From Desmonostoc muscorum LEGE 12446 (GTDB taxonomy: Bacteria; Cyanobacteriota; Cyanobacteriia; Cyanobacteriales; Nostocaceae): DNA of 64,000 nt. Positions 5,288 to 19,421 of the stretch are shown here, in pieces. The DNA lies in assembly GCF_015207005.2 (NCBI RefSeq), contig NZ_JADEXS020000001.1, forward strand, positions 6,533,001 through 6,597,000. The letters run 5' to 3'. Numbering within the stretch: the first letter of the stretch is position 1; every line of letters starts with the position of its first letter. A model generated the notes under the pieces. That model saw only the letters and a list, made by a program, of their open reading frames with translations. It ran no database searches and had not been told where the DNA came from. Both the position numbers and the translations under genes were made by a program.

Positions 5288-5962
5288 ATGAGTCAAAAAC
5301 TCAAGACTCCTCTAAATTCTATGCTGGCGATCGCCAAAACATTGCAAAATGAAGTATGCGACCTTTTGAGCGAACAACAGCGCCAGTCTCTAAATCATCT
5401 AGAAGATAGCGCTCGGAATCTCTGGGAATTAATCAACGACATCCTCGACCTAGCTGATATTGAATCTAACAAAATGGAACTGCAAGTAGCTTCGACTTCA
5501 ATTCAAGAATTATGTGACTCTAGTCTCAGTTTTGTCAAACATCTGGCATTAGAAAAAAATATCCAGTTAAGTGTACAAGTACCGGAAGAACTCACACCCT
5601 TCCAAGTCGATGAAGAACGCATTCGACAGGCCTTCATTAACCTGTTAAGCAACGCTATCAAATATACTCCAGAGGGAGGCAAAGTTTGGATTGAAATTCA
5701 ACCAAATTCCACAAACCAACATATCTTTTTCAGCATCGTAGATACTGGCATTGGTATTCCCTCCGATGACCTATTCAAATTATTTCAACCTTTAGTCCCA
5801 GATGACAGTTCATACACCCGCCGTTCTGCAAACACAGGTTTAGGATTACTAATGGTGCAAAGAATTGTAGAGTTGCACGGTGGTAGTGTCCATGCTGAAA
5901 GTCAATTAGGCAAAGGCAGTAGATTTACAGTCAAGCTTCCTTGGAGAAAGAGAGCGGAATAG
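5288..5962 (+). pseudogene. Truncated histidine kinase lacking the phospho-acceptor His
   Basis: A 224-residue HisKA plus HATPase_c fragment. The HisKA motif, normally FLANMSHELRTPLN, reads FLANMSQKLKTPLN: the H-box His is Gln and the next Glu is Lys. The ATP-binding domain looks sound: N-box INLLSNAIKYTPEGG near residue 120, G1 DTGIGIP, G2 GLGLLMV. No sensor domain precedes it; the start Met lies inside the H-box, and a linker-like reading frame upstream ends at a stop. It is most likely a decaying kinase. A stable pseudokinase or phosphatase-only protein is the alternative. No response regulator is adjacent. Confidence 0.65.
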
Positions 5963-6915: not shown

Positions 6916-8064
6916 ATGTCAGATAGAGTTAATAAAGAGTTGGGGAATTTTTTACAGCAGATAGAACAGCGATCGCACTTTCATGCAGGTTATCCATACA
7001 ATTTAACTTGTGATTACAGTGAGATTATAAAATCTTTCAATTTCATGTTAAATAATGCTGGAGATCCATATGTTGAACCAGATTTTGGTCTGCATTCTCG
7101 TCAATTTGAACAAGAAGTATTGTCTTTTTTTGCCCAACTTTATAAGATTCCAGAAAATAAATTTTGGGGTTATGTTACTGCTGGGGGAACTGAAGGTAAT
7201 TTATATGGAATGTTTTTAGCAAGAGAAATTTATCCAAATGGGATTCTTTACTCATCACAAGACTCTCATTACTCAATTCCCAAAGCCGCTAGACTATTTC
7301 GGATCAAACATCAAGTTGTGGATTCGCAAATTAATGGGGAAATAAGTTATGACCATTTTGAGCAACTAATTAGCCAAAATCGTGATTATCCGGCGATAAT
7401 AAATTTAAATATTGGCACTACTGTTAAAGGTGCGATCGATAACTTAGACAAAGTTTTAGAAATTTTAGATCGTCATCAAATCAAAAATTACTACATTCAT
7501 TGTGATGCTGCACTTTCAGGATTAATATTACCCTTTTTAGATGGCGCTCCTCAAGTGAATTTTCAAAAACCTATAGATAGTGTAGCTATTTCTGCTAAAT
7601 TCATGGGTTCTCCATTGCCTTGTGGTGTAGTTTTAACTAAGAAAAAGTGGGTAGAAAGAGTGGAAACAATGATTGAATATATTGGTTCCAAAGATACAAC
7701 TATTCTCGGTTCTAGAAACGGTCATACTCCTCTGATTCTCTGGTATGCACTGCAAAGTAGAGGTTACAATGGGTTAGCCAGAGAAGCAAAGACCTGTATT
7801 CGGAATGCCCAATATCTTTTTCAACAACTTCAACTCAGAGAATATCCATGTATGCTCAATAATTTCTCTACTACTGTAGTGTTTAAAAAACCTTCTCAAC
7901 GGTTAGTTAAAAAGTGGCAGTTAGCAAGTTTTGAGAATTGGGTACACATTGTAGTCATGCAGAATATTGATAAAGAGAAAATCGATACTTTTATTGATGA
8001 ACTTGTTTTAGAACAGAGGCTATTTGAGCAAGTAAAGGATTTACAGCTACAGGCAGTAAGCTAA
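6916..8064 (+). CDS. hdc: PLP-dependent histidine decarboxylase
   Basis: A 382-residue group II-type decarboxylase that would convert L-histidine to histamine and CO2 in the cytosol. Family features in order: FHAGYPYN near residue 22, TAGGTEGNLYGMFLARE near 93 (PLP phosphate site), SSQDSHYSIPKAARL with the ring-stacking His, IGTTVKGAIDN, HCDAALSG with the PLP-binding Asp, and the Schiff-base Lys at about residue 228 in AISAKFMGSPLPCGVVL. The usual sequence before that Lys is SGHK; here one residue is missing and the Gly-His is replaced by Ala, which may affect activity. It is convergent with a permease/c-di-GMP fusion. Serine decarboxylase of the same fold is a weaker alternative. Confidence 0.85.
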   Translation: MSDRVNKELGNFLQQIEQRSHFHAGYPYNLTCDYSEIIKSFNFMLNNAGDPYVEPDFGLHSRQFEQEVLSFFAQLYKIPENKFWGYVTAGGTEGNLYGMFLAREIYPNGILYSSQDSHYSIPKAARLFRIKHQVVDSQINGEISYDHFEQLISQNRDYPAIINLNIGTTVKGAIDNLDKVLEILDRHQIKNYYIHCDAALSGLILPFLDGAPQVNFQKPIDSVAISAKFMGSPLPCGVVLTKKKWVERVETMIEYIGSKDTTILGSRNGHTPLILWYALQSRGYNGLAREAKTCIRNAQYLFQQLQLREYPCMLNNFSTTVVFKKPSQRLVKKWQLASFENWVHIVVMQNIDKEKIDTFIDELVLEQRLFEQVKDLQLQAVS

Positions 8065-8115
8065 ATTATCGGGCATGGGGCATTGGGCATGGAGTATTGG
8101 TTATTAGTTAAAGAT

Positions 8116-8213
8116 TAGACCTCTTGCAAAAGTCCCCTAACACCCCACCCCCAGCCCCTCCCCGCTCGCGGGGAGGGAAGACTTTGACGTAAGTCAAAGG
8201 CGGGGTGGGGTTC
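8116..8213. repeat. MITE copy abutting the GGDEF-EAL gene end
   Basis: It starts TAGACCTCTTGCAAAAGTCCC and carries the hairpin CCCCTCCCCGCTCGCGGGGAGG and then GTCAAAGGCGGGGTGGGGTTCTT. It is the inverted equivalent of 44577-44702. The second end is degenerate and appears to run into the last codons of the minus-strand gene. Confidence 0.65.
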
Positions 8214-11200
8214 TTAGTTCCTTAACAAGTCTTTGTAACAAAAATTAGCGGCAAGTATTCTTTCTACTTCTGCACTTTGCATAGGTGGTAAGAAAAAATA
8301 TCCTTGTCCATAATCACATTGCAATGCCTTAAGTTGTGCTAATTGTTCTACAGTTTCTATTCCTTCTGCTGTGACAGACATATTCAAATTATGAGCTAAT
8401 GTAACAATCGCTCGAACAATTTCTAAATTTTCTCCTCGACTACCTATATTGTTGACAAAAGAGCGGTCAATCTTAATGGTTTTGATTGGCAGCCGATGCA
8501 GATAATTCAAAGATGAATAGCCAGTACCAAAATCATCCATGTGCAATTCAACATTCAGCGCATTTAGCTGGGAAAGCACAGTAGTAGCTAATTCAAAATT
8601 ATCCATCAACAAGCTTTCAGTAATCTCTAATTTCAAACTACACGGCTCTAGTCCAGTTTGCTGTAAAGTCTGTTTAACTTGTTTAAAGATATCAGGTTGC
8701 GTAATCTGTTTCCCAGAAAAATTGACGCTAATTGTCAAGTTTAGGGAACTAGGAAATTGTTGATGCCATGTGTGCATTTGGTGGCACGCTTGATAAAGTA
8801 CCCATTGGCCGATATTAACAATCATTCCAGTTTCTTCCGCCAAAGGGATAAAATCATGAGGAGAAACAATTCCTCGTTGTGGATGATGCCAGCGTATCAA
8901 TGCTTCAAATCCAATAATTTTGCCAGTTAGCAGTGAAACAATTGGCTGGTAGTAAAGGCGAAATTCTTCTTGCTTGAGCAACAGTGCATGTCGCAGAGCA
9001 GTTTCTAATTCTAAGAGTAAAGATGCACCCTCATGCATCTTTTGGTCAAACACTTCATAACGTGCCTTACCAAGGGCTTTGGCAGAATACATTGCCACAT
9101 CGGCATCGCGTATAATCTGGGCTGCTTGCTGATAATCTGCTTTACTGAAAGCAATGCCAATACTAGCGTTGGTAAACACGCGATGTTCATTCAATTGAAA
9201 TGGTAAAGCTAGCACCTTTTTAATGCGTTCAGCTATGTGTGTAGCCGTGTTAAGATCATCAATTTCCTCAATTAAGATTGTGAACTCATCTCCACCAAAG
9301 CGGGCAACTATATCTCCGGCTCGAATAACTGACTTGAGCCGATGAGAAATTGCAATTAAAAGTTGATTTCCTAGTAAATGTCCAAGACTATCATTCACAA
9401 CTTTAAAGCGGTCTAAGTCTAAGAAAAGTACAGCAAATAGATAATTTTTGTCGTGTTTTGTACGTTCTATTGACTGCTGCACTCGCTGGATAAATAAAGA
9501 TTGATTGGGTAACCCGGTTAGCCCGTCATGAAGGCTATTGTGTAGTAATTTTTCTTGTGCTTCTTGACGCTTGATAATGTCTTGCTGGAGTTGTTGATTA
9601 ACTCGAATAAGTTCAATAGTGCGTTCTAGGACTAGTTGCTCAAGCTGGCAACGGTATTGCACTAATTCTTCCTCTGCTACCTTACGTTGAGTGATGTCAC
9701 GTACAATGACAACATACTCCCGTAGTTGGGGATTAAATCGCCGTGAAACAGTCGATTCAACAATTCGTAGACCTTGGTTGATTTTTAAAGTTTGCTCACT
9801 CCTAATAGACCATTGCTCTGGTTTGCCGTGATAGCACATTAAGAGTTGATTCAAGTTTTGTCCAACCAACTGCTGAACACTTAATTCAAATAATTCTTCA
9901 GCAGCTGCATTGGTTTGACAAATCATCCCGTCTTCATCTAAAACTAAAACAGTATCTGGAACCGTATCGAGAGTAGTGATAAATAGATTTTTTGCTTGTT
10001 TGCGTGCCTCATCAATAGCAACAATTTGTGGTAGAGTTGTCCAGCAGGCGATCGCTACTCCTGTAAAAGAAAGCGTCACTAGCAAAATAGCTAATAAAGA
10101 GTTAGGAGTATTATTAGTCACTTTGCCTAATAAATCGCGGATAAACCAACTACTTGTAGCAGTGATGCAAATTAATGATACTAAGACAATTACTTGTAAT
10201 ACAACAAAGTCTGGGTTGTTTCTACTAGACTTTGCATCGTAACGTTCTTTCCACCATTTTGGATGTAATACCGCTAATCTTAAGCGACTTAGCACTGCAT
10301 CTGCTAGCATCAGAGCAATGGGTAAAAATAATCCTACTAAAAAATCTCTCGAATTCCAAGCTAAACCTCCCACTATCAGAACTACCGCTTCTACAAAGAA
10401 AAAACCAAGTGACCACCAAGGCCATAAAACCTCCGGTTGGCCTCGACACAGCCATAATCCTAAATGTAGTCCCATAATCGACAACAGATAACAAGTACCT
10501 GCTACTGTCACCAGTTGAGATACATTTCCCAAATTCAAACAAAGCAGACTGAGAATAAATGCAACTAGAATCGCAGGTCCAAGAACACCTTGGCGGGAAA
10601 CTACTGTAAATATCTCAGAAAGCTGTCCATCTAAGGCAAGTTGGTATAATATCCGAGGAGAATTACAAACTGCCGTAGCAGAACTTAAAAGACAGGATAC
10701 AGTAATTAGAAGTGTTACTAAAAAAGAGGCATATTTACCCCAAAAAGGTACAGAAGCTGCTAGCAAATTTAGGAAAACATCGTCTCCTATTGCTGGATTT
10801 TGAGCCGAACACGTTAATATCCAAGAACTGCCTAGAAACACCGGAGGAATTAGCCAAGCAGCCACAGTTAAGAACTTCAAAGTTTTATCTGGATTGTGGC
10901 TATCAGCAACAAAAGAAGAAGTGGTTTCACAAGCATAAATTGAATAGCTGGCGAGGAAAAACCACTTTGCCCATTCTTCAAAGCTCAAGCTATGTATATT
11001 AGCTGGAAGTAAGTTAAGAGTAATGCTTGAGAAAGTTAACCAGACTACGCCTTGGATACAAAACAAAAACAGTAGTAAAATTGCTGGGAATACAAAAAAT
11101 AAATGCAGCAGCGCTAAAGCACGGCTACCACTGAATGCAACAATAAAAGGAATCGCTGTAAATACAACTTTTAAAAAAGTTTCTGGACAAGAAATATTTA

Positions 11201-11600
11201 ATGTTTCAAAATTGACTTTAATCAGGTTTGTCAGAATAATTGCGTACAGCGCTGGTGCTGCTGCCCAGCTAAAAAAGTACCCTAAAGCTACGTAACGACC
11301 TAAGCCAGGAAAGTTTTTTAATAGCCTTGTGGTATAGTTCGGTGTTCCTCCTGCGACATCTGGCCAATGTCTACCTAAACTTTGTACCTGCAAATTAAGT
11401 AAAAAGGAGACGATAGTGCCAAACAACCAAACTAAGATAGCTTTAGACCCTAACGCTGCATGAATAATGGGGGCAGTTCCAATCCATCCAACATGACCCG
11501 TCAACCCAAAACCCCAGGTTTCGAGATAACTTAAAGTACGTGGTAAGCGCATTTCCAAATGCTGATTTTTCTCTGCCTGTAGAGAATCGTTACTAGTCAT
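8214..11600 (-). CDS. Amino-acid permease fused to PAS-GGDEF-EAL (c-di-GMP turnover)
   Basis: A 1128-residue fusion. Residues about 20-530 resemble an APC-superfamily amino-acid permease with 12 or more membrane helices (GFGLTGHVGWIGTAPIIHAA at the start). A PAS domain follows (about 535-645, ending in REYVVIVRDITQRK), then a coiled coil and GGDEF at about 690-850. GGDEF has HDGLTGLPN, an intact RFGGDEF and an RxxD inhibitory site (RAGD) five residues before it. EAL lies at about 870-1115 with EALIRW, NFSGKQ, EITES, DDFGTGYSS, KIDRSF and AEGIE, so both catalytic domains look competent. A permease-like sensor could couple substrate binding to c-di-GMP synthesis or breakdown at the membrane. 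It faces hdc, and amine-forming decarboxylases often sit beside APC antiporters, so histidine or histamine is a candidate ligand (inference). The stop lies at the edge of a MITE. Confidence 0.85.
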   Translation of the reverse strand: MTSNDSLQAEKNQHLEMRLPRTLSYLETWGFGLTGHVGWIGTAPIIHAALGSKAILVWLFGTIVSFLLNLQVQSLGRHWPDVAGGTPNYTTRLLKNFPGLGRYVALGYFFSWAAAPALYAIILTNLIKVNFETLNISCPETFLKVVFTAIPFIVAFSGSRALALLHLFFVFPAILLLFLFCIQGVVWLTFSSITLNLLPANIHSLSFEEWAKWFFLASYSIYACETTSSFVADSHNPDKTLKFLTVAAWLIPPVFLGSSWILTCSAQNPAIGDDVFLNLLAASVPFWGKYASFLVTLLITVSCLLSSATAVCNSPRILYQLALDGQLSEIFTVVSRQGVLGPAILVAFILSLLCLNLGNVSQLVTVAGTCYLLSIMGLHLGLWLCRGQPEVLWPWWSLGFFFVEAVVLIVGGLAWNSRDFLVGLFLPIALMLADAVLSRLRLAVLHPKWWKERYDAKSSRNNPDFVVLQVIVLVSLICITATSSWFIRDLLGKVTNNTPNSLLAILLVTLSFTGVAIACWTTLPQIVAIDEARKQAKNLFITTLDTVPDTVLVLDEDGMICQTNAAAEELFELSVQQLVGQNLNQLLMCYHGKPEQWSIRSEQTLKINQGLRIVESTVSRRFNPQLREYVVIVRDITQRKVAEEELVQYRCQLEQLVLERTIELIRVNQQLQQDIIKRQEAQEKLLHNSLHDGLTGLPNQSLFIQRVQQSIERTKHDKNYLFAVLFLDLDRFKVVNDSLGHLLGNQLLIAISHRLKSVIRAGDIVARFGGDEFTILIEEIDDLNTATHIAERIKKVLALPFQLNEHRVFTNASIGIAFSKADYQQAAQIIRDADVAMYSAKALGKARYEVFDQKMHEGASLLLELETALRHALLLKQEEFRLYYQPIVSLLTGKIIGFEALIRWHHPQRGIVSPHDFIPLAEETGMIVNIGQWVLYQACHQMHTWHQQFPSSLNLTISVNFSGKQITQPDIFKQVKQTLQQTGLEPCSLKLEITESLLMDNFELATTVLSQLNALNVELHMDDFGTGYSSLNYLHRLPIKTIKIDRSFVNNIGSRGENLEIVRAIVTLAHNLNMSVTAEGIETVEQLAQLKALQCDYGQGYFFLPPMQSAEVERILAANFCYKDLLRN

Positions 11601-14057: not shown

Positions 14058-16061
14058 ATGACTATAGATGAAGTAGTACTGCTATTAAAAGCTAGTCAAG
14101 CAACCGGTTTAACAACACTCCAAGAAATTGTATTGCGTTCTTCCTGGGAAGGAAAAACCTACACCAACATTGCAGTTGAAGCAGACTATGCTGAGGATCG
14201 CATCAAGAAAGTTGCCGTTGATTTATGGCAAATATTGAGTGATTTTTACAAAGAACCGATAAATGAATCCAACTTGCGCCAGACTCTAGAAAATCATCGT
14301 CTTGGCAAAGCACATCAGCAGTTACTTAGGGAATTTTATCAAGCTGCGGCAGCCATGTCCTTAGAATTTCCTAGTGGTCCAGTATCCCTAAATTCCAGAT
14401 TCTACATTTCTCGCCCGCCAATTGAGGAACTTGCTTACGCAGAAATGGCTCAACCAGGGAGTGTGATCTGCATCAAAGCACCCAAAAAAATGGGGAAAAG
14501 CTCTCTGGTGCTGCGGCTGCTTGCACGCGCTAAAAAACAAGGCTTTCGCACCGTGAGTTTGGACTTTCAACAAGCAGACAAAACAGTATTTGCCAATTTG
14601 GATAAATTTTTGCGCTGGTTTTGTGCCAATGTCAGCCGAGAATTACAGCTAGAACCAAAACTCAATGATTATTGGGATGAAGATATGGGTAGCAAAATTA
14701 GTTGCTCTATCTATTTCCAAAAGTATTTGCTATCTGCGTTGGAAACTTCCCTGGTTTTAGTCTTAAATGAAGCGGATTGGGTGTTTGAGTATCAGGAAAT
14801 TGCTGGAGAATTGCTAACATTAGTGCGATCGTGGCACGAACAAGCTAAAGCAGGAGAAATTTGGCAAAAACTGCGCCTGGTTCTGGTTTATTCAACGGAA
14901 ATTTTTGTTCCCATAAAACTTACTCAATCAGCATTTAATATTGGTTTGCCGATTAAATTACCTGCTTTTACAAAAGAACAAGTGCAAGATTTGGCACAAC
15001 GTCACGGTTTGGATTGGACAGATGGTAAAGATGCTGACAGTTTAATGGCTATGGTGGGGGGACATCCTTATTTGCTGCGATTGGCTTTGTATCATCTTGT
15101 AGGTAAAGGGGGATTACAAGGTAATTTAGCACAGCTATTGCAACAAGCACCCACAGAATCAGGAATTTATCACGAATATTTAAAGCAGTATATATTAGTA
15201 CTCAAGGATGAGCCACAATTAGCAGATGCTTTGTATCAAGTAATTCATGCTACAAATTATGTGAAATTAGAACCAATATTGGCAGATAAATTACAGGGTA
15301 TGGGGCTAATTAATTTACAGGGCGATCGCTGTACTCCTACATGTGAATTATATCGGTTATATTTTATCGAACATCTGAAAAATAATCAGGAATTAAACAA
15401 TAATCATGTTGAGCGTTTGAAACAAGAAAATCAAAAATTGCTTATCCTCTCTAGCTTGGATGAACTAACTCAATTAGTAAATCGCCGCTATTTTCAAACC
15501 TACCTACAAATTGAATGGCAAAGTTGTGTTCGTCAACGTACCCCAATATCACTAATTTTGTGCGATATCGACTATTTCAAAATTTATAATAAAAATTATG
15601 GCATTGCCGCAGGAGATAAGTGTTTACAAGAAATCGCTAATACTATCTGCAACTGCGTAAAATGCTCCCTGGGTAATAGTACTTTCTCATATGCTAATAG
15701 AAGTATGGCTTATCCTACTACTAATTATTTTGCAAATTTACCAAAAGGAGATTTTAGAGATGAAAACAGCGAAGTGTTAGTGGCTCGTTACGGTGGTGAA
15801 GAATTTGCCATTGTTGCGAAAATAGATGTTGCTGCTGCAATGTACGTTGCCGAATATATTCGAGAGCAAGTGAAAGCTTTGGCGATTCAGTGTGAGTATC
15901 CTAGTATTGGTGGTTTACCTGCTGCTGTTTTAACTGTCAGTTTAGGTGTAGCAAGTATTATTCCTAAAGTTGAAACTGAGCCGGCTAATTTAGTTAATGC
16001 TGCTGAAAAAGCACTTAATCAAGCAAAAAGACAAGGACGCGATCGCGTTGTTTTAGGTTAA
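14058..16061 (+). CDS. vMAP-type HTH plus AAA/STAND ATPase fused to a GGDEF diguanylate cyclase
   Basis: A 667-residue fusion. Residues 1-80 form an HTH-like domain (LQEIVLRSSWEGKTYTNIA) typical of cyanobacterial vWA-MoxR-associated proteins. Residues about 120-440 are an AAA-like ATPase with P-loop KAPKKMGKSSLVLRLL near 137 and LVLNEAD as a probable Walker B. The C-terminal part from about 475 is a GGDEF domain: LDELTQLVNRRYF, LILCDIDYFK, active site RYGGEEF. The RxxD inhibitory site is absent (NSEV in its place), and an extra loop of about 40 residues precedes GGEEF. A ligand-activated switch ATPase controlling c-di-GMP production is a reasonable reading. No transmembrane segment is seen. 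Confidence 0.8.
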   Translation: MTIDEVVLLLKASQATGLTTLQEIVLRSSWEGKTYTNIAVEADYAEDRIKKVAVDLWQILSDFYKEPINESNLRQTLENHRLGKAHQQLLREFYQAAAAMSLEFPSGPVSLNSRFYISRPPIEELAYAEMAQPGSVICIKAPKKMGKSSLVLRLLARAKKQGFRTVSLDFQQADKTVFANLDKFLRWFCANVSRELQLEPKLNDYWDEDMGSKISCSIYFQKYLLSALETSLVLVLNEADWVFEYQEIAGELLTLVRSWHEQAKAGEIWQKLRLVLVYSTEIFVPIKLTQSAFNIGLPIKLPAFTKEQVQDLAQRHGLDWTDGKDADSLMAMVGGHPYLLRLALYHLVGKGGLQGNLAQLLQQAPTESGIYHEYLKQYILVLKDEPQLADALYQVIHATNYVKLEPILADKLQGMGLINLQGDRCTPTCELYRLYFIEHLKNNQELNNNHVERLKQENQKLLILSSLDELTQLVNRRYFQTYLQIEWQSCVRQRTPISLILCDIDYFKIYNKNYGIAAGDKCLQEIANTICNCVKCSLGNSTFSYANRSMAYPTTNYFANLPKGDFRDENSEVLVARYGGEEFAIVAKIDVAAAMYVAEYIREQVKALAIQCEYPSIGGLPAAVLTVSLGVASIIPKVETEPANLVNAAEKALNQAKRQGRDRVVLG

Positions 16062-16775: not shown

Positions 16776-19421
16776 CTATTGTGAAGAGAGGCGATCGCGT
16801 AGATATGCTAAATTTTCACGAACACCAATAGTATTGGGATGATTCACCCCTAACCGTCGCTCACAAATATCTAAAGCTTGAATGTAAAGGGGTTCGGCTT
16901 CGCTGTATCTGCCTTGGGACTTGTAGAGTAACGCTAAGTTGTTGAGGCTAGCGGCGACAGATGGATGTTCATCTCCCAGCAGTTGACGCGAAAGTGCCAA
17001 AGCTTGAATGTAAAGGGGTTCGGCTTCGCTGTATCTGCCTTGGGAGTTGTAGAGTTCTGCTAGGTTGTTGAGGCTAGCGGCGACAGATGGATGTTCATCT
17101 CCCAGCAGTTGACGCGAAAGTGCCAAAGCTTGGATGAAAAGGGGTTCGGCTTCGCTGTATCTGCCTTGGGAGTTGTAGAGTCCCGCTAGGTTGTTGAGGC
17201 TAGTGGCGACAGATGGATGTTCATCTCCCAGCAGTTGACGCGAAAGTGCTAAAGCTTGGATGAAAAGGGGTTCGGCTTCGCTGTATCTGCCTTGGGAGTC
17301 GTAGAGTAACGCTAGGTTGTTGAGGCTTTGGGCGACAGATGGATGTTCATCTCCCAGCAGCTTGCGCGTGAGTGCTAAAGCTTGGATGAAAAGGGGTTCG
17401 GCTTCGCTGTATCTGCCTTGGGAGTTGTAGAGTAACGCTAGGTTGTTGAGACTAAGTGCGACAGATGGATGTTCATCTCCCAGCAGCTTGCGCCTAAGTG
17501 CCAAAGCTTGGATAAAAAGGGGTTCGGCTTCGCTGTATCTGCCTTGGGAGTTGTAGAGTAACGCTAGGTTGTTGAGGCTACTGGCGACAGATGGATGTTC
17601 ATCTCCCAGCAGTTGACGCCAAAGTGCCAAAGCTTGGATGAAAAGGGGTTCGGCTTCGCTGTATCTGCCTTGGGAGTTGTAGAGTAACGCTAAGTTGTTG
17701 AGGCTAGTGGCGACAGATAGATGTTCATCTCCCAAGCGCTTTTTAGTGACTTCTAGACATTTTTCATACCAGGGTAAAGCTTGGTTATATAAACCTTGAC
17801 CATCATAAAATCCAGCGTTGCCGATGAAAGGCCAAAATAAATCATCATCGCTGAGGTATTGAATGAGATGATTCGCTACTTCAGCTATATGAGGAATGGC
17901 GCTAGAAACGGCGGTGATTTGCTCAAGAGTGGGCGAGTCAGGAATATATTGGGCAACTGCTACCATTACTCTGCAAAAACTTCGCTTTAATTCTTCTGCT
18001 TGCTGTAAATCTATAAGCTTATATTGAAAAAACTCCCTTAGCAGTGGATGTAGTTGATAAATTCCCTTATCTTTGCGCTGAAGTAAATGCAAATTCAACA
18101 ACTTATCATCTCTAATTTCTTCTAACTCTCCCTCATATTCTTCTGTTACACACTGTTCCACCAACTTCCAAGATATAGGCGCGGCGGCAAATAAACTCAG
18201 CAAACAACCAAGCTGCTTATCGCTGTCTTCTAATTCTTGCCAACTCAACTCAAAGGCTGCTAACACACCTCGTTGTGCTGTCATGTCGGTTTCTGGTTTA
18301 TCAAAGGCGGCTTGTTCTAGTCGCTTGTTCTTCAACCGCCGCAACATTTCTGTGAAAGATAAATCCTGTTTTCGCGCCAAATATCGCCCGACTAATTCCA
18401 AACCCAAAGGCAAATATCCCAACCACTCACACAACTGATTTGCAACAGCTAATTCTTGCTCAATTCGCTGTGGTGTTTCTTTAAAAAATGACTTTAATAG
18501 CTCCAGCGCTTCTTCTGGTTGCAATACATCCAGAGATAATTGCTTAATAGATGCTCCCAAGTATTGGCGCGTGGTAATCAACACTTTAAACCGGGAAGAT
18601 GACGAGGGTAAATAAGGCTTAACCTGCTCATATTCCCTAACATCGTCTAACACTAGCAGCACATCGCCCTCGCGCCAATGCCGCCAGCAGTATTGCACTT
18701 GGGCGAAGACATCCAAACCTTCTGGTAAGTTTAAATCAAGCACAGTTCTGGCAAACTGCACAACTTGAATGCCGACATCACCAGCCTTTGCCAGCAACCA
18801 GCAAATTCCACCCTTGTAAGTTTCGCGGTGATTCCTGGCATATTGTAGGGCAAGTTCTGTTTTACCAACTCCACCCATACCAGCAACAGCAGCTATAGCC
18901 ACCTGTTCATTTTCCTGCAAAAGCTGATGGAGATTTTGCAAATCTTTTTCACGTCCAACAAACTCCACCACTCCACTTAAGGGAATATTTTCGTAAAACG
19001 TCAGCTTGGGTTTAGCTTTTTTTGCCTCAGCACGCTGCACACCGGGTAATTCTTCTCTACGGCGTTGCCATTCTGCATCAAATTTACTTAAGTTCCCCTC
19101 TTTGTCCCCTTTGTCGCACCAAAGCGTCAGCTTAAAATGCCAGTTCTCCGAACCTCGCTTGTGTTCGCGCAAATCTTCCAGAATACCCAAAAACTCAGCA
19201 AGTGCTTTTAGCGCTTCTCGAACTTGTTCTTTATCTAAACCACCAAGTTCTGCCAAAACTCTTAGCTGTGTCCTCACAACTAGTTGCTTTGGTGTTTGCC
19301 AATTAAAGTCAATTTTAAAACGCTCACCGTTATCTATCTCATCATTGGCATAAGCCAACAACCTTTCTAATAGCTGCCTTACCCGCGCCTTGACATCATC
19401 GCCATAGCTAACACGCGTCAT
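16776..19421 (-). CDS. STAND NTPase: NB-ARC core with Kinesin-light-chain TPR array
   Basis: An 881-residue protein. Residues 1-130 form an N-terminal region common to cyanobacterial STAND proteins (ENWHFKLTLWCDKGDKEGNL). NB-ARC follows: VEFVGREKDL, P-loop GMGGVGKTELALQYA near 184, Walker B VLLVLDDV, LITTRQ and GYLPLGLELVG. A winged-helix region ends in QLHPLLREFF. From about residue 558 there are seven nearly identical 42-residue TPRs (LGDEHPSVAxSLNNLA, then SQGRYSEAEPL) and a decayed eighth. STAND proteins assemble when the repeat sensor binds a ligand; bacterial members include phage-sensing defence proteins. No separate effector domain is recognised, so the N-terminal region or the small membrane protein at 19583 may matter. 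Confidence 0.88.
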   Translation of the reverse strand: MTRVSYGDDVKARVRQLLERLLAYANDEIDNGERFKIDFNWQTPKQLVVRTQLRVLAELGGLDKEQVREALKALAEFLGILEDLREHKRGSENWHFKLTLWCDKGDKEGNLSKFDAEWQRRREELPGVQRAEAKKAKPKLTFYENIPLSGVVEFVGREKDLQNLHQLLQENEQVAIAAVAGMGGVGKTELALQYARNHRETYKGGICWLLAKAGDVGIQVVQFARTVLDLNLPEGLDVFAQVQYCWRHWREGDVLLVLDDVREYEQVKPYLPSSSSRFKVLITTRQYLGASIKQLSLDVLQPEEALELLKSFFKETPQRIEQELAVANQLCEWLGYLPLGLELVGRYLARKQDLSFTEMLRRLKNKRLEQAAFDKPETDMTAQRGVLAAFELSWQELEDSDKQLGCLLSLFAAAPISWKLVEQCVTEEYEGELEEIRDDKLLNLHLLQRKDKGIYQLHPLLREFFQYKLIDLQQAEELKRSFCRVMVAVAQYIPDSPTLEQITAVSSAIPHIAEVANHLIQYLSDDDLFWPFIGNAGFYDGQGLYNQALPWYEKCLEVTKKRLGDEHLSVATSLNNLALLYNSQGRYSEAEPLFIQALALWRQLLGDEHPSVASSLNNLALLYNSQGRYSEAEPLFIQALALRRKLLGDEHPSVALSLNNLALLYNSQGRYSEAEPLFIQALALTRKLLGDEHPSVAQSLNNLALLYDSQGRYSEAEPLFIQALALSRQLLGDEHPSVATSLNNLAGLYNSQGRYSEAEPLFIQALALSRQLLGDEHPSVAASLNNLAELYNSQGRYSEAEPLYIQALALSRQLLGDEHPSVAASLNNLALLYKSQGRYSEAEPLYIQALDICERRLGVNHPNTIGVRENLAYLRDRLSSQ
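16860..17745. repeat. Seven 126-bp tandem repeats inside the TPR coding region
   Basis: The marker GACAGAT recurs at 16956, 17082, 17208, 17334, 17460, 17586 and 17712, exactly 126 bp apart. The copies differ at only a few bases, mostly at the same codons, which indicates recent amplification or gene conversion. Confidence 0.92.

What the first reader, a model, noticed from the sequence alone, without database searches (positions are those of the whole stretch)
6916..11600. Histidine decarboxylase facing an amino-acid permease fused to PAS-GGDEF-EAL
The permease-like domain with 12 or more helices is fused to apparently active cyclase and phosphodiesterase domains, with GGDEF, EAL and the RxxD feedback site all intact. 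APC antiporters usually partner amino-acid decarboxylases, and here the APC partner has become a c-di-GMP protein next to hdc. This could be a histidine or histamine transceptor controlling the biofilm or motility messenger.
Basis: partly seen in the sequence, partly recalled or inferred. Interest (0 to 1): 0.85.

Follow-up and report, generated by a model that had tools for sequence, protein, structure and literature searches.

The report
Decarboxylase paired with permease-like c-di-GMP receptor
In Nostoc and kin, a gene for a serine-type amino-acid decarboxylase sits beside a gene that joins a permease-like membrane part to enzyme domains for making and breaking the messenger c-di-GMP, and a second, separately formed version of the pair suggests that the two proteins work on the same small molecule.

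Summary
ORF 8214-11600(-) encodes an APC-fold membrane domain, PAS, GGDEF and EAL; the decarboxylase at 6916-8064(+) faces it. The pairing recurs: in 53 genus genomes the same 47 carry both genes, and 48 of 50 decarboxylase copies lie within 5 kb of the fusion, the other two being contig-end pieces. A second, separate pairing joins a 47-48%-identical decarboxylase to APC-PAS-histidine-kinase paralogues; both gene trees reject a single origin (p-AU 8e-6 and 5e-7). In Aliterella the window's decarboxylase clade is paired with an APC-histidine kinase, so the output module changed while the partner was kept.

The histidine/histamine reading is not supported: the 'hdc' has YPY, the serine-decarboxylase specificity motif, where solved bacterial HDC has YPE, and the tree sets them apart. 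Its clade has also lost the histidine before the PLP lysine.

Best reading: a transporter-derived receptor (transceptor) that senses substrate or product of its partner decarboxylase, perhaps serine or ethanolamine, and sets c-di-GMP. Ligand, sensing and direction are inferred, untested. My searches of an open library listed no paper on this family.

The parts
6916..8064 (+). [quoted passage not shown]
   Evidence: NCBIfam PRK02769 525 bits; best solved relatives 8jij/8jik/8jg7, named serine decarboxylase, 389-401 bits; 7erv HDC 314 bits; tree
6991..6999 (+). Y-P-Y substrate-specificity motif (residues 26-28; Tyr28 = AtSerDC Tyr111)
   Evidence: alignments; conserved
7591..7599 (+). S-A-K at the PLP lysine (residues 226-228): the S-G-H-K of relatives with the histidine missing
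8214..11600 (-). APC-PAS-GGDEF-EAL fusion, 1128 aa
   Evidence: ORF; Pfam
10236..11555 (-). APC-fold membrane core, residues 16-455
9984..10214 (-). two extra long helices (residues 463-492 and 498-539) leading to the PAS domain
   Evidence: secondary structure of the model, (block pLDDT 58-79 here)
9681..9974 (-). PAS domain, residues 543-640
   Evidence: PF00989/PF08448
9066..9533 (-). GGDEF domain, residues 690-845, with GGDEF and RxxD inhibitory-site motif
   Evidence: PF00990 151 bits; motif seen in the translation
8283..8999 (-). EAL domain, residues 868-1106
   Evidence: PF00563 262 bits; motifs seen in the translation

Best explanation
The fusion is a transporter-derived membrane receptor (a transceptor in the loose sense). 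Its APC-fold domain binds a small amino acid or amine, and the binding state is passed through the last membrane helix and the PAS domain to a GGDEF-EAL pair that raises or lowers c-di-GMP. The neighbouring enzyme is a serine-type decarboxylase acting on the same ligand pool: it either consumes the ligand (serine or a similar small amino acid) or makes it (ethanolamine or a similar amine). Receptor and enzyme form a unit that ties the state of one amino acid/amine pair to surface behaviour. Shown by computation: domain make-up, APC fold, intact catalytic motifs, strict co-occurrence in the genus, at least two separate pairings, change of output module. Inferred: that the APC part senses rather than only transports, the ligand, the enzyme's substrate, and the sign of the response.
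For: Among 53 genus genomes the same 47 hold window-type fusion and decarboxylase; 48 of 50 decarboxylase rows are within 5 kb of the fusion, the other two are pieces at contig starts. In the two named genomes where the genes are apart, a 1128-aa APC frame, 74-78% identical, exists elsewhere. Second pairing: 6 of 8 other decarboxylase rows in the genus lie in tandem with an APC-sensor paralogue, an APC-histidine kinase in L190 (Pfam); Mojavia has the pair convergent. One clade of all linked APC domains is rejected (p-AU 8.2e-6), one clade of the two linked decarboxylase types too (p-AU 4.9e-7). Decarboxylases with a sensor on the fetched stretch were all YPY: 47 of 54 YPY rows, 0 of 24 others (rows are related, stretches of unequal length). 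Output change: Aliterella (PAS-histidine kinase, followed 8 bp on by a regulator with two receiver domains and DUF4388) against Nostoc (GGDEF-EAL), with one decarboxylase clade. dN/dS 0.06-0.21 for the decarboxylase in 13 comparisons and 0.04-0.23 for the fusion's domains in 11. Serine-type motif and tree side.
Against: 39 of 45 other APC-sensor rows in the genus have no decarboxylase near, so the family as a whole does not need one. Within the genus, plain inheritance would also keep neighbours: a ParA-like gene lies beside the fusion in 11 of 13 fetched loci. The genes are convergent in Nostoc, so no shared transcript. The missing histidine could mean an altered or weak enzyme. YPY is consistent with serine but does not prove it, and the window clade is not sister to the plant enzymes. 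No experiment was done; transport was not excluded.
Confidence: 0.5

Rival explanations
1. One reading: a true histidine decarboxylase, with the fusion sensing histidine or histamine.
For: NCBIfam and most public names listed call it histidine decarboxylase.
Against: YPY instead of YPE, closer to plant serine/alanine decarboxylases, and split from solved HDC by a 100/99 branch; grouping it with 7ERV alone is rejected (p-AU 4.3e-4). 7ERV is a long branch. Grouping it with the plant enzymes alone is rejected as well (3.2e-4), so it is sister to neither.
Confidence: 0.08
2. The APC part is a working amino acid/amine exchanger of the AdiC/GadC sort that serves the decarboxylase, and the GGDEF-EAL part reads transport flux.
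For: APC fold, with AdiC, ApcT and LAT-type carriers among the best matches; CbrA, a transporter-kinase of another family, takes up histidine (PMC13022988, abstract and introduction read).
Against: TM1 of the family has an almost invariant Trp (38 of 40) where, in my hand alignment with an APC carrier of the same genome, the second Gly of its G-A-G lies; matches to carriers start inside or after TM1 (residues 33 and 40, 60). The TM1 alignment is by hand, so this is weak.
Confidence: 0.2
3. The window's decarboxylase is no longer a normal enzyme but a PLP- or ligand-binding partner protein of the receptor: the loss of the phosphate-binding histidine coincides with the pairing.
For: All 43 loci that are 71-99% identical and cover the site lack the residue, and the nearest unpaired relative, Gloeocapsa (69%), has it, in a genome (a MAG) with no APC-sensor match; AtSerDC His313 binds the PLP phosphate (PMC11407765).
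Against: The proton-donor tyrosine and the other tested active-site positions are invariant in 44 of 44 rows, unlike a dead enzyme; the second pairing keeps the histidine.
Confidence: 0.15
4. The neighbourhood is passive: the two genes were inherited side by side without a shared function.
For: Within the genus linkage could be simple inheritance; a ParA-like gene also stays beside the fusion in 11 of 13 fetched loci.
Against: Two separate pairings, four gene arrangements, absence of both genes in 6 of 53 genomes, co-presence kept after separation in two genomes.
Confidence: 0.07

Closest known systems
CbrA of Pseudomonas (SLC5-STAC-PAS-histidine kinase transceptor)
   Same: Transporter-fold N-terminus, PAS and signalling output in one chain; amino-acid ligand; link to metabolism
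   Different: Another transporter family (SLC5, not APC); kinase rather than GGDEF-EAL output; STAC domain; no paired decarboxylase known to me. Read: abstract and introduction of PMC13022988
Amt-type ammonium sensor kinase of 'Ca. Kuenenia'
   Same: Transporter fold turned sensor and fused to an output
   Different: Ammonium, Amt fold, histidine kinase. Seen only in a search listing with the start of the abstract (PMC5764959)
Plant serine/alanine decarboxylases (AtSerDC, CsAlaDC)
   Same: Closest solved relatives of the decarboxylase; YPY as in AtSerDC; same catalytic residues
   Different: 46-48% identity; histidine before the PLP lysine missing in the window protein; not sister clades
Bacterial PLP histidine decarboxylase (Photobacterium phosphoreum 7ERV)
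   Same: Same superfamily, 43% identity; family name used in annotation
   Different: YPE specificity motif; on the other side of a 100/99 branch
APC exchangers paired with decarboxylases (AdiC, GadC; recalled)
   Same: APC fold plus an amino-acid decarboxylase
   Different: There the APC protein is a plain carrier; here it is fused to a signalling output
GGDEF-EAL phosphodiesterases such as DibA and DosP
   Same: Output half; NCBIfam hits over residues 662-1117
   Different: The equivalog models shown (25 of 37 families listed) score below their cut-offs

Membership tests
PLP histidine decarboxylase (PRK02769) | NCBIfam score above the curated cut-off | tested here: met
   525 against 305 bits
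PLP histidine decarboxylase (solved enzyme 7ERV) | same residue as 7ERV at the specificity position (YPE) | tested here: not met
   Tyr in the window protein, Glu in 7ERV
PLP histidine decarboxylase (solved enzyme 7ERV) | groups with 7ERV in a tree | tested here: not met
   split 100/99; held together alone p-AU 4.3e-4; 7ERV is a long branch
PLP histidine decarboxylase | makes histamine | not testable with these tools
   needs an enzyme assay
Serine decarboxylase, plant type | Tyr at the YPX position | tested here: met
Serine decarboxylase, plant type | PLP lysine, catalytic tyrosine, PLP-stacking His, Asp, Ala and other residues named in PMC11407765 | tested here: met
   window protein; 44 of 44 rows; the lysine is part of the pattern by which those rows were chosen
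Serine decarboxylase, plant type | His before the PLP lysine, binding the phosphate | tested here: not met
   gap in the window protein
Serine decarboxylase, plant type | clade with the plant enzymes | tested here: not met
   window clade plus plant enzymes alone rejected, p-AU 3.2e-4; both lie on the same side of the deep split
Serine decarboxylase, plant type | C-terminal zinc finger | tested here: inconclusive
   the match covers chain residues 33-388 of 421; the last part has no aligned counterpart
Serine decarboxylase | makes ethanolamine from serine | not testable with these tools
   needs an enzyme assay
APC superfamily | APC fold and Pfam match | tested here: met
APC superfamily amino-acid carriers | glycine motif in TM1 (recalled) | tested here: inconclusive
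   not seen; Trp39 in 38 of 40; hand alignment only; hhalign did not reach TM1
SLC5-STAC histidine kinases (CbrA) | SLC5 membrane domain | tested here: not met
   Pfam and fold matches are APC
SLC5-STAC histidine kinases (CbrA) | STAC domain after the membrane part | tested here: inconclusive
   no Pfam match between residues 411 and 539; that part was not folded alone
Bifunctional diguanylate cyclase / phosphodiesterase | GGDEF, RxxD and EAL catalytic motifs | tested here: met
Bifunctional diguanylate cyclase / phosphodiesterase | activity | not testable with these tools
   needs an enzyme assay

The most novel reading that the evidence does not exclude
Cyanobacteria hold a modular family of APC-derived receptors whose output (histidine kinase, GGDEF, GGDEF-EAL) is readily exchanged and which has at least twice, separately, recruited a serine-type decarboxylase as a dedicated partner; in the Nostoc line the partner has changed its PLP site and acts as part of the receptor system, reporting serine/ethanolamine state to c-di-GMP rather than serving bulk metabolism.
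Probability: 0.25. Interest if true: 0.8.

Novelty: new variant of a known kind. Interest (0 to 1): 0.62.

Why it matters
The papers I read call bacterial receptors made from transporters rare, and what activates them is unclear. Here genome context names candidate ligands (substrate and product of one enzyme) for a c-di-GMP receptor, in a genus with motile and symbiotic stages. It also questions a database name: 'histidine decarboxylase' beside this fusion in Nostoc is probably a serine-type enzyme.

Tried and rejected
Considered and rejected: a histidine/histamine sensor (motif and tree); chance neighbourhood; a sequencing artefact as cause of the missing histidine (13 of 13 window-type copies and 43 of 43 loci that are 71-99% identical and cover the site lack it); a broken fusion (one open frame, low dN/dS).

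Led nowhere: no solved relative of the APC domain by single sequence up to E 1, only a weak profile match to LysP 9eyd (E 3.3e-5); hhalign of the APC profile with the two other AA_permease_2 proteins of the genome gave no usable alignment; no Rfam family at gathering score in the window; promoter-like sites no more than in shuffles (17 against a mean of 16.1). Neighbours of 37 APC sensors (34 of them unlinked): of the 74 adjacent genes listed I gave 61 to Pfam (decarboxylases, APC neighbours and four small ORFs left out); 84 families, the commonest a receiver domain in 9 of 61, no common enzyme. Comparison of linked and unlinked APC domains found few differing positions (218 Ser, 283 Ser, 365 Thr in the window clade), partly shared with the second linked group; not conclusive. 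The weak NCBIfam hits of the APC domain (best 32 bits, TMAO permease, cut-off 690) name no substrate.

Literature: ten searches of an open PMC library; I saw titles and starts of abstracts, and where many papers matched only the top of the list (20 of 357, 20 of 233, 12 of 39). None listed describes an APC-GGDEF-EAL or APC-kinase protein. Word searches inside three papers: PMC13075795 (0 hits for permease or transporter), PMC11109136 (12 of 24 passages shown) and PMC1183210 (12 of 21 passages shown, the one with 'permease' not among them). Subscription papers are not in that library.

Full report

2. The decarboxylase is not well called hdc. NCBIfam names it histidine decarboxylase, but the best solved relatives are 8jij/8jik (401 bits) and 8jg7 (389 bits), all named serine decarboxylase, ahead of Photobacterium histidine decarboxylase 7ERV (314 bits). 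8jij has YPF and is, by motif and numbering, probably the tea alanine enzyme; 8jg7 has YPY. PMC11407765 (outline and abstract, sections 6, 8 and 11 read) shows that the third residue of a Y-P-X motif sets specificity: Tyr for serine, Phe for alanine. The window protein has YPY, 7ERV has YPE. In a 40-row tree the window clade lies on the plant-enzyme side of a branch with support 100/99, and 7ERV, a long branch, on the other. It is sister to neither: holding it with the plant enzymes alone or with 7ERV alone is rejected (p-AU 3.2e-4 and 4.3e-4). Serine as substrate is an inference.

3. An odd active site. The S-G-H-K at the PLP lysine of relatives reads S-A-K here (7591-7599). The residue lost matches AtSerDC His313, which binds the PLP phosphate. 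It is lost, with Ala or Gly before the lysine, in 13 of 13 window-type copies and in all 43 loci that are 71-99% identical and cover the site (L199 is cut before it). In 44 rows chosen by that pattern (43 loci plus the window) the other 16 positions checked are invariant, the catalytic tyrosine among them, and so is the lysine, which is part of the pattern. dN/dS of the gene is 0.06-0.21 over 13 comparisons, the most distant with saturated dS. So the protein is under constraint and probably still a PLP enzyme, with a changed phosphate site.

4. The pairing is real. In 53 genomes of the genus, 47 have the window-type fusion (two of them only in contig-end pieces) and the same 47 have the window-type decarboxylase; 6 have neither (positions). 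Of 50 window-type decarboxylase rows 48 lie within 5 kb of the fusion's permease part; the other two are pieces at contig starts. One extra fusion copy (G017:C88) has no decarboxylase. In an even sample of 319 genomes of the phylum, five of them of the genus, the decarboxylase is found in 7 and the APC sensor in 30, so joint presence is not due to both being common. Among named genomes 41 of 43 His-less decarboxylases have an APC sensor on the fetched stretch; in 39 of them it has GGDEF/EAL matches and lies convergent, in two it is a kinase type and divergent. The two exceptions (Nostoc spongiaeforme FACHB-130, Nostoc sp. CHAB 5844) hold a 1128-aa APC frame elsewhere in the genome. As a control, a ParA-like gene also stays beside the fusion in 11 of 13 fetched genus loci, so within the genus plain inheritance is part of the picture; the argument for function rests on point 5 and on joint absence.

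5. It arose more than once and changes its output. In a non-redundant set of 43 APC sensors from the fetched loci 36 show kinase motifs, 6 GGDEF plus EAL and 1 neither; one search also lists forms with GGDEF alone and one with kinase plus receiver domains. The window's own genome has a kinase paralogue, 48% identical, at G000:C1:6254402-6256357, with no decarboxylase beside it (L090). In six places in the genus a 47-48%-identical decarboxylase lies in tandem with an APC-sensor paralogue. Where fetched (L110-L112, L190-L193) it lies directly upstream; those examined have intact S-G-H-K and YPY, and L190 is an APC-PAS-histidine kinase by Pfam. In Mojavia the two are convergent (L196). The linked APC domains are not one clade (p-AU 8.2e-6, quick tree), nor are the two linked decarboxylase types (p-AU 4.9e-7, careful tree). 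In Aliterella atlantica, and in a contig binned as Tatlockia but close to it, the His-less decarboxylase is divergent from an APC sensor with two PAS matches and kinase domains (in the second contig the kinase is split over two frames), followed by a regulator that in Aliterella has two receiver domains and DUF4388; the two regulators are 76% identical. DUF4388 with receiver domains recalls PatA-like regulators (recalled, not tested). So within one decarboxylase clade the output differs between kinase and GGDEF-EAL while the enzyme stayed. Every sensor-linked decarboxylase had YPY: 47 of 54 YPY rows, 0 of 24 others. These rows are related and the stretches of unequal length, so this is a pattern, not a test.

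6. How it probably works. The recurrent partner suggests that the APC domain binds the enzyme's substrate or product. The TM1 glycine motif of amino-acid carriers (recalled) is not readable in this family; an almost invariant Trp (38 of 40) lies there in a hand alignment with another APC protein of the same genome. This hints at a receptor more than a carrier, but is weak. The signal would pass through helix 498-539 to PAS and on to GGDEF-EAL. Which of the two catalytic activities prevails, and whether the ligand raises or lowers c-di-GMP, cannot be told. In cyanobacteria c-di-GMP acts on motility, biofilm and cell fate (titles and starts of abstracts only).

7. Against this reading. 39 of 45 other APC-sensor rows in the genus have no decarboxylase nearby, so most of the family senses without it. 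Two of 8 other decarboxylase rows in the genus are unlinked as well. The genes are convergent in Nostoc. The grouping of window-type and Aliterella-type linked APC domains has only 64% support, so it is open whether that pairing is one gain, with a loss in G352 (contig length as given for Synechocystis sp. PCC 7509), or two. A Gloeocapsa decarboxylase of the sister branch exists in a genome without any APC-sensor match, and Dendronalium has a YPY decarboxylase away from its sensor, so the enzyme family also lives alone. No function was measured.

8. Place among known things. It works like CbrA-type transceptors but from another transporter family, with another output and with a paired enzyme. 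My searches listed no description of it (see Tried and rejected for their limits). I rate it a new variant of a known kind.

Noticed in passing
G000:C1:6254402-6256357 (L002:658-3480 -), outside the window: The window's own genome has an APC-PAS-histidine kinase paralogue, 48% identical to the fusion over 656 residues, without a decarboxylase neighbour.
   Followed up: partly
L095:6459-9265 and L096:6336-9145 (G015, G020): The second APC sensor is split into two frames with stops in two genomes, apparently broken copies.
   Followed up: no
   Followed up: partly
   Followed up: no
L130:5264-6832, L131:5248-6825: Regulator with two receiver domains and DUF4388 (Pfam shown for L130) directly after the Aliterella-type APC-kinase, 76% identical between the two loci: probable cognate response regulator.
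   Followed up: partly
L131 (record titled MAG: Tatlockia sp.): The stretch encodes proteins close to Aliterella ones, so the contig is probably cyanobacterial and misbinned.
   Followed up: no
L156:11274-12041, L161:11396-12157, L162:11330-12091: In some Nostoc a short-chain dehydrogenase gene (Pfam shown for L156) follows the decarboxylase, between it and the fusion or where the fusion is absent; Aliterella has a different one (29-31% identical) 29 bp downstream.
   Followed up: partly
window 5288-5962 (+): A lone 224-aa HisKA-HATPase piece of a histidine kinase upstream of the decarboxylase; among the 13 genus fusion loci only L098 shows a close copy (89%).
   Followed up: no
window 14058-16061 (+): AAA_35 domain fused to a GGDEF domain, another c-di-GMP-type protein near by.
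   Followed up: no
window 16776-19421 (-): Protein with EAD4, NB-ARC and TPR matches, of the NLR-like kind.
   Followed up: no
P0215: A related decarboxylase with S-A-Y-K and YPL: a different change at the histidine before the PLP lysine.
   Followed up: no
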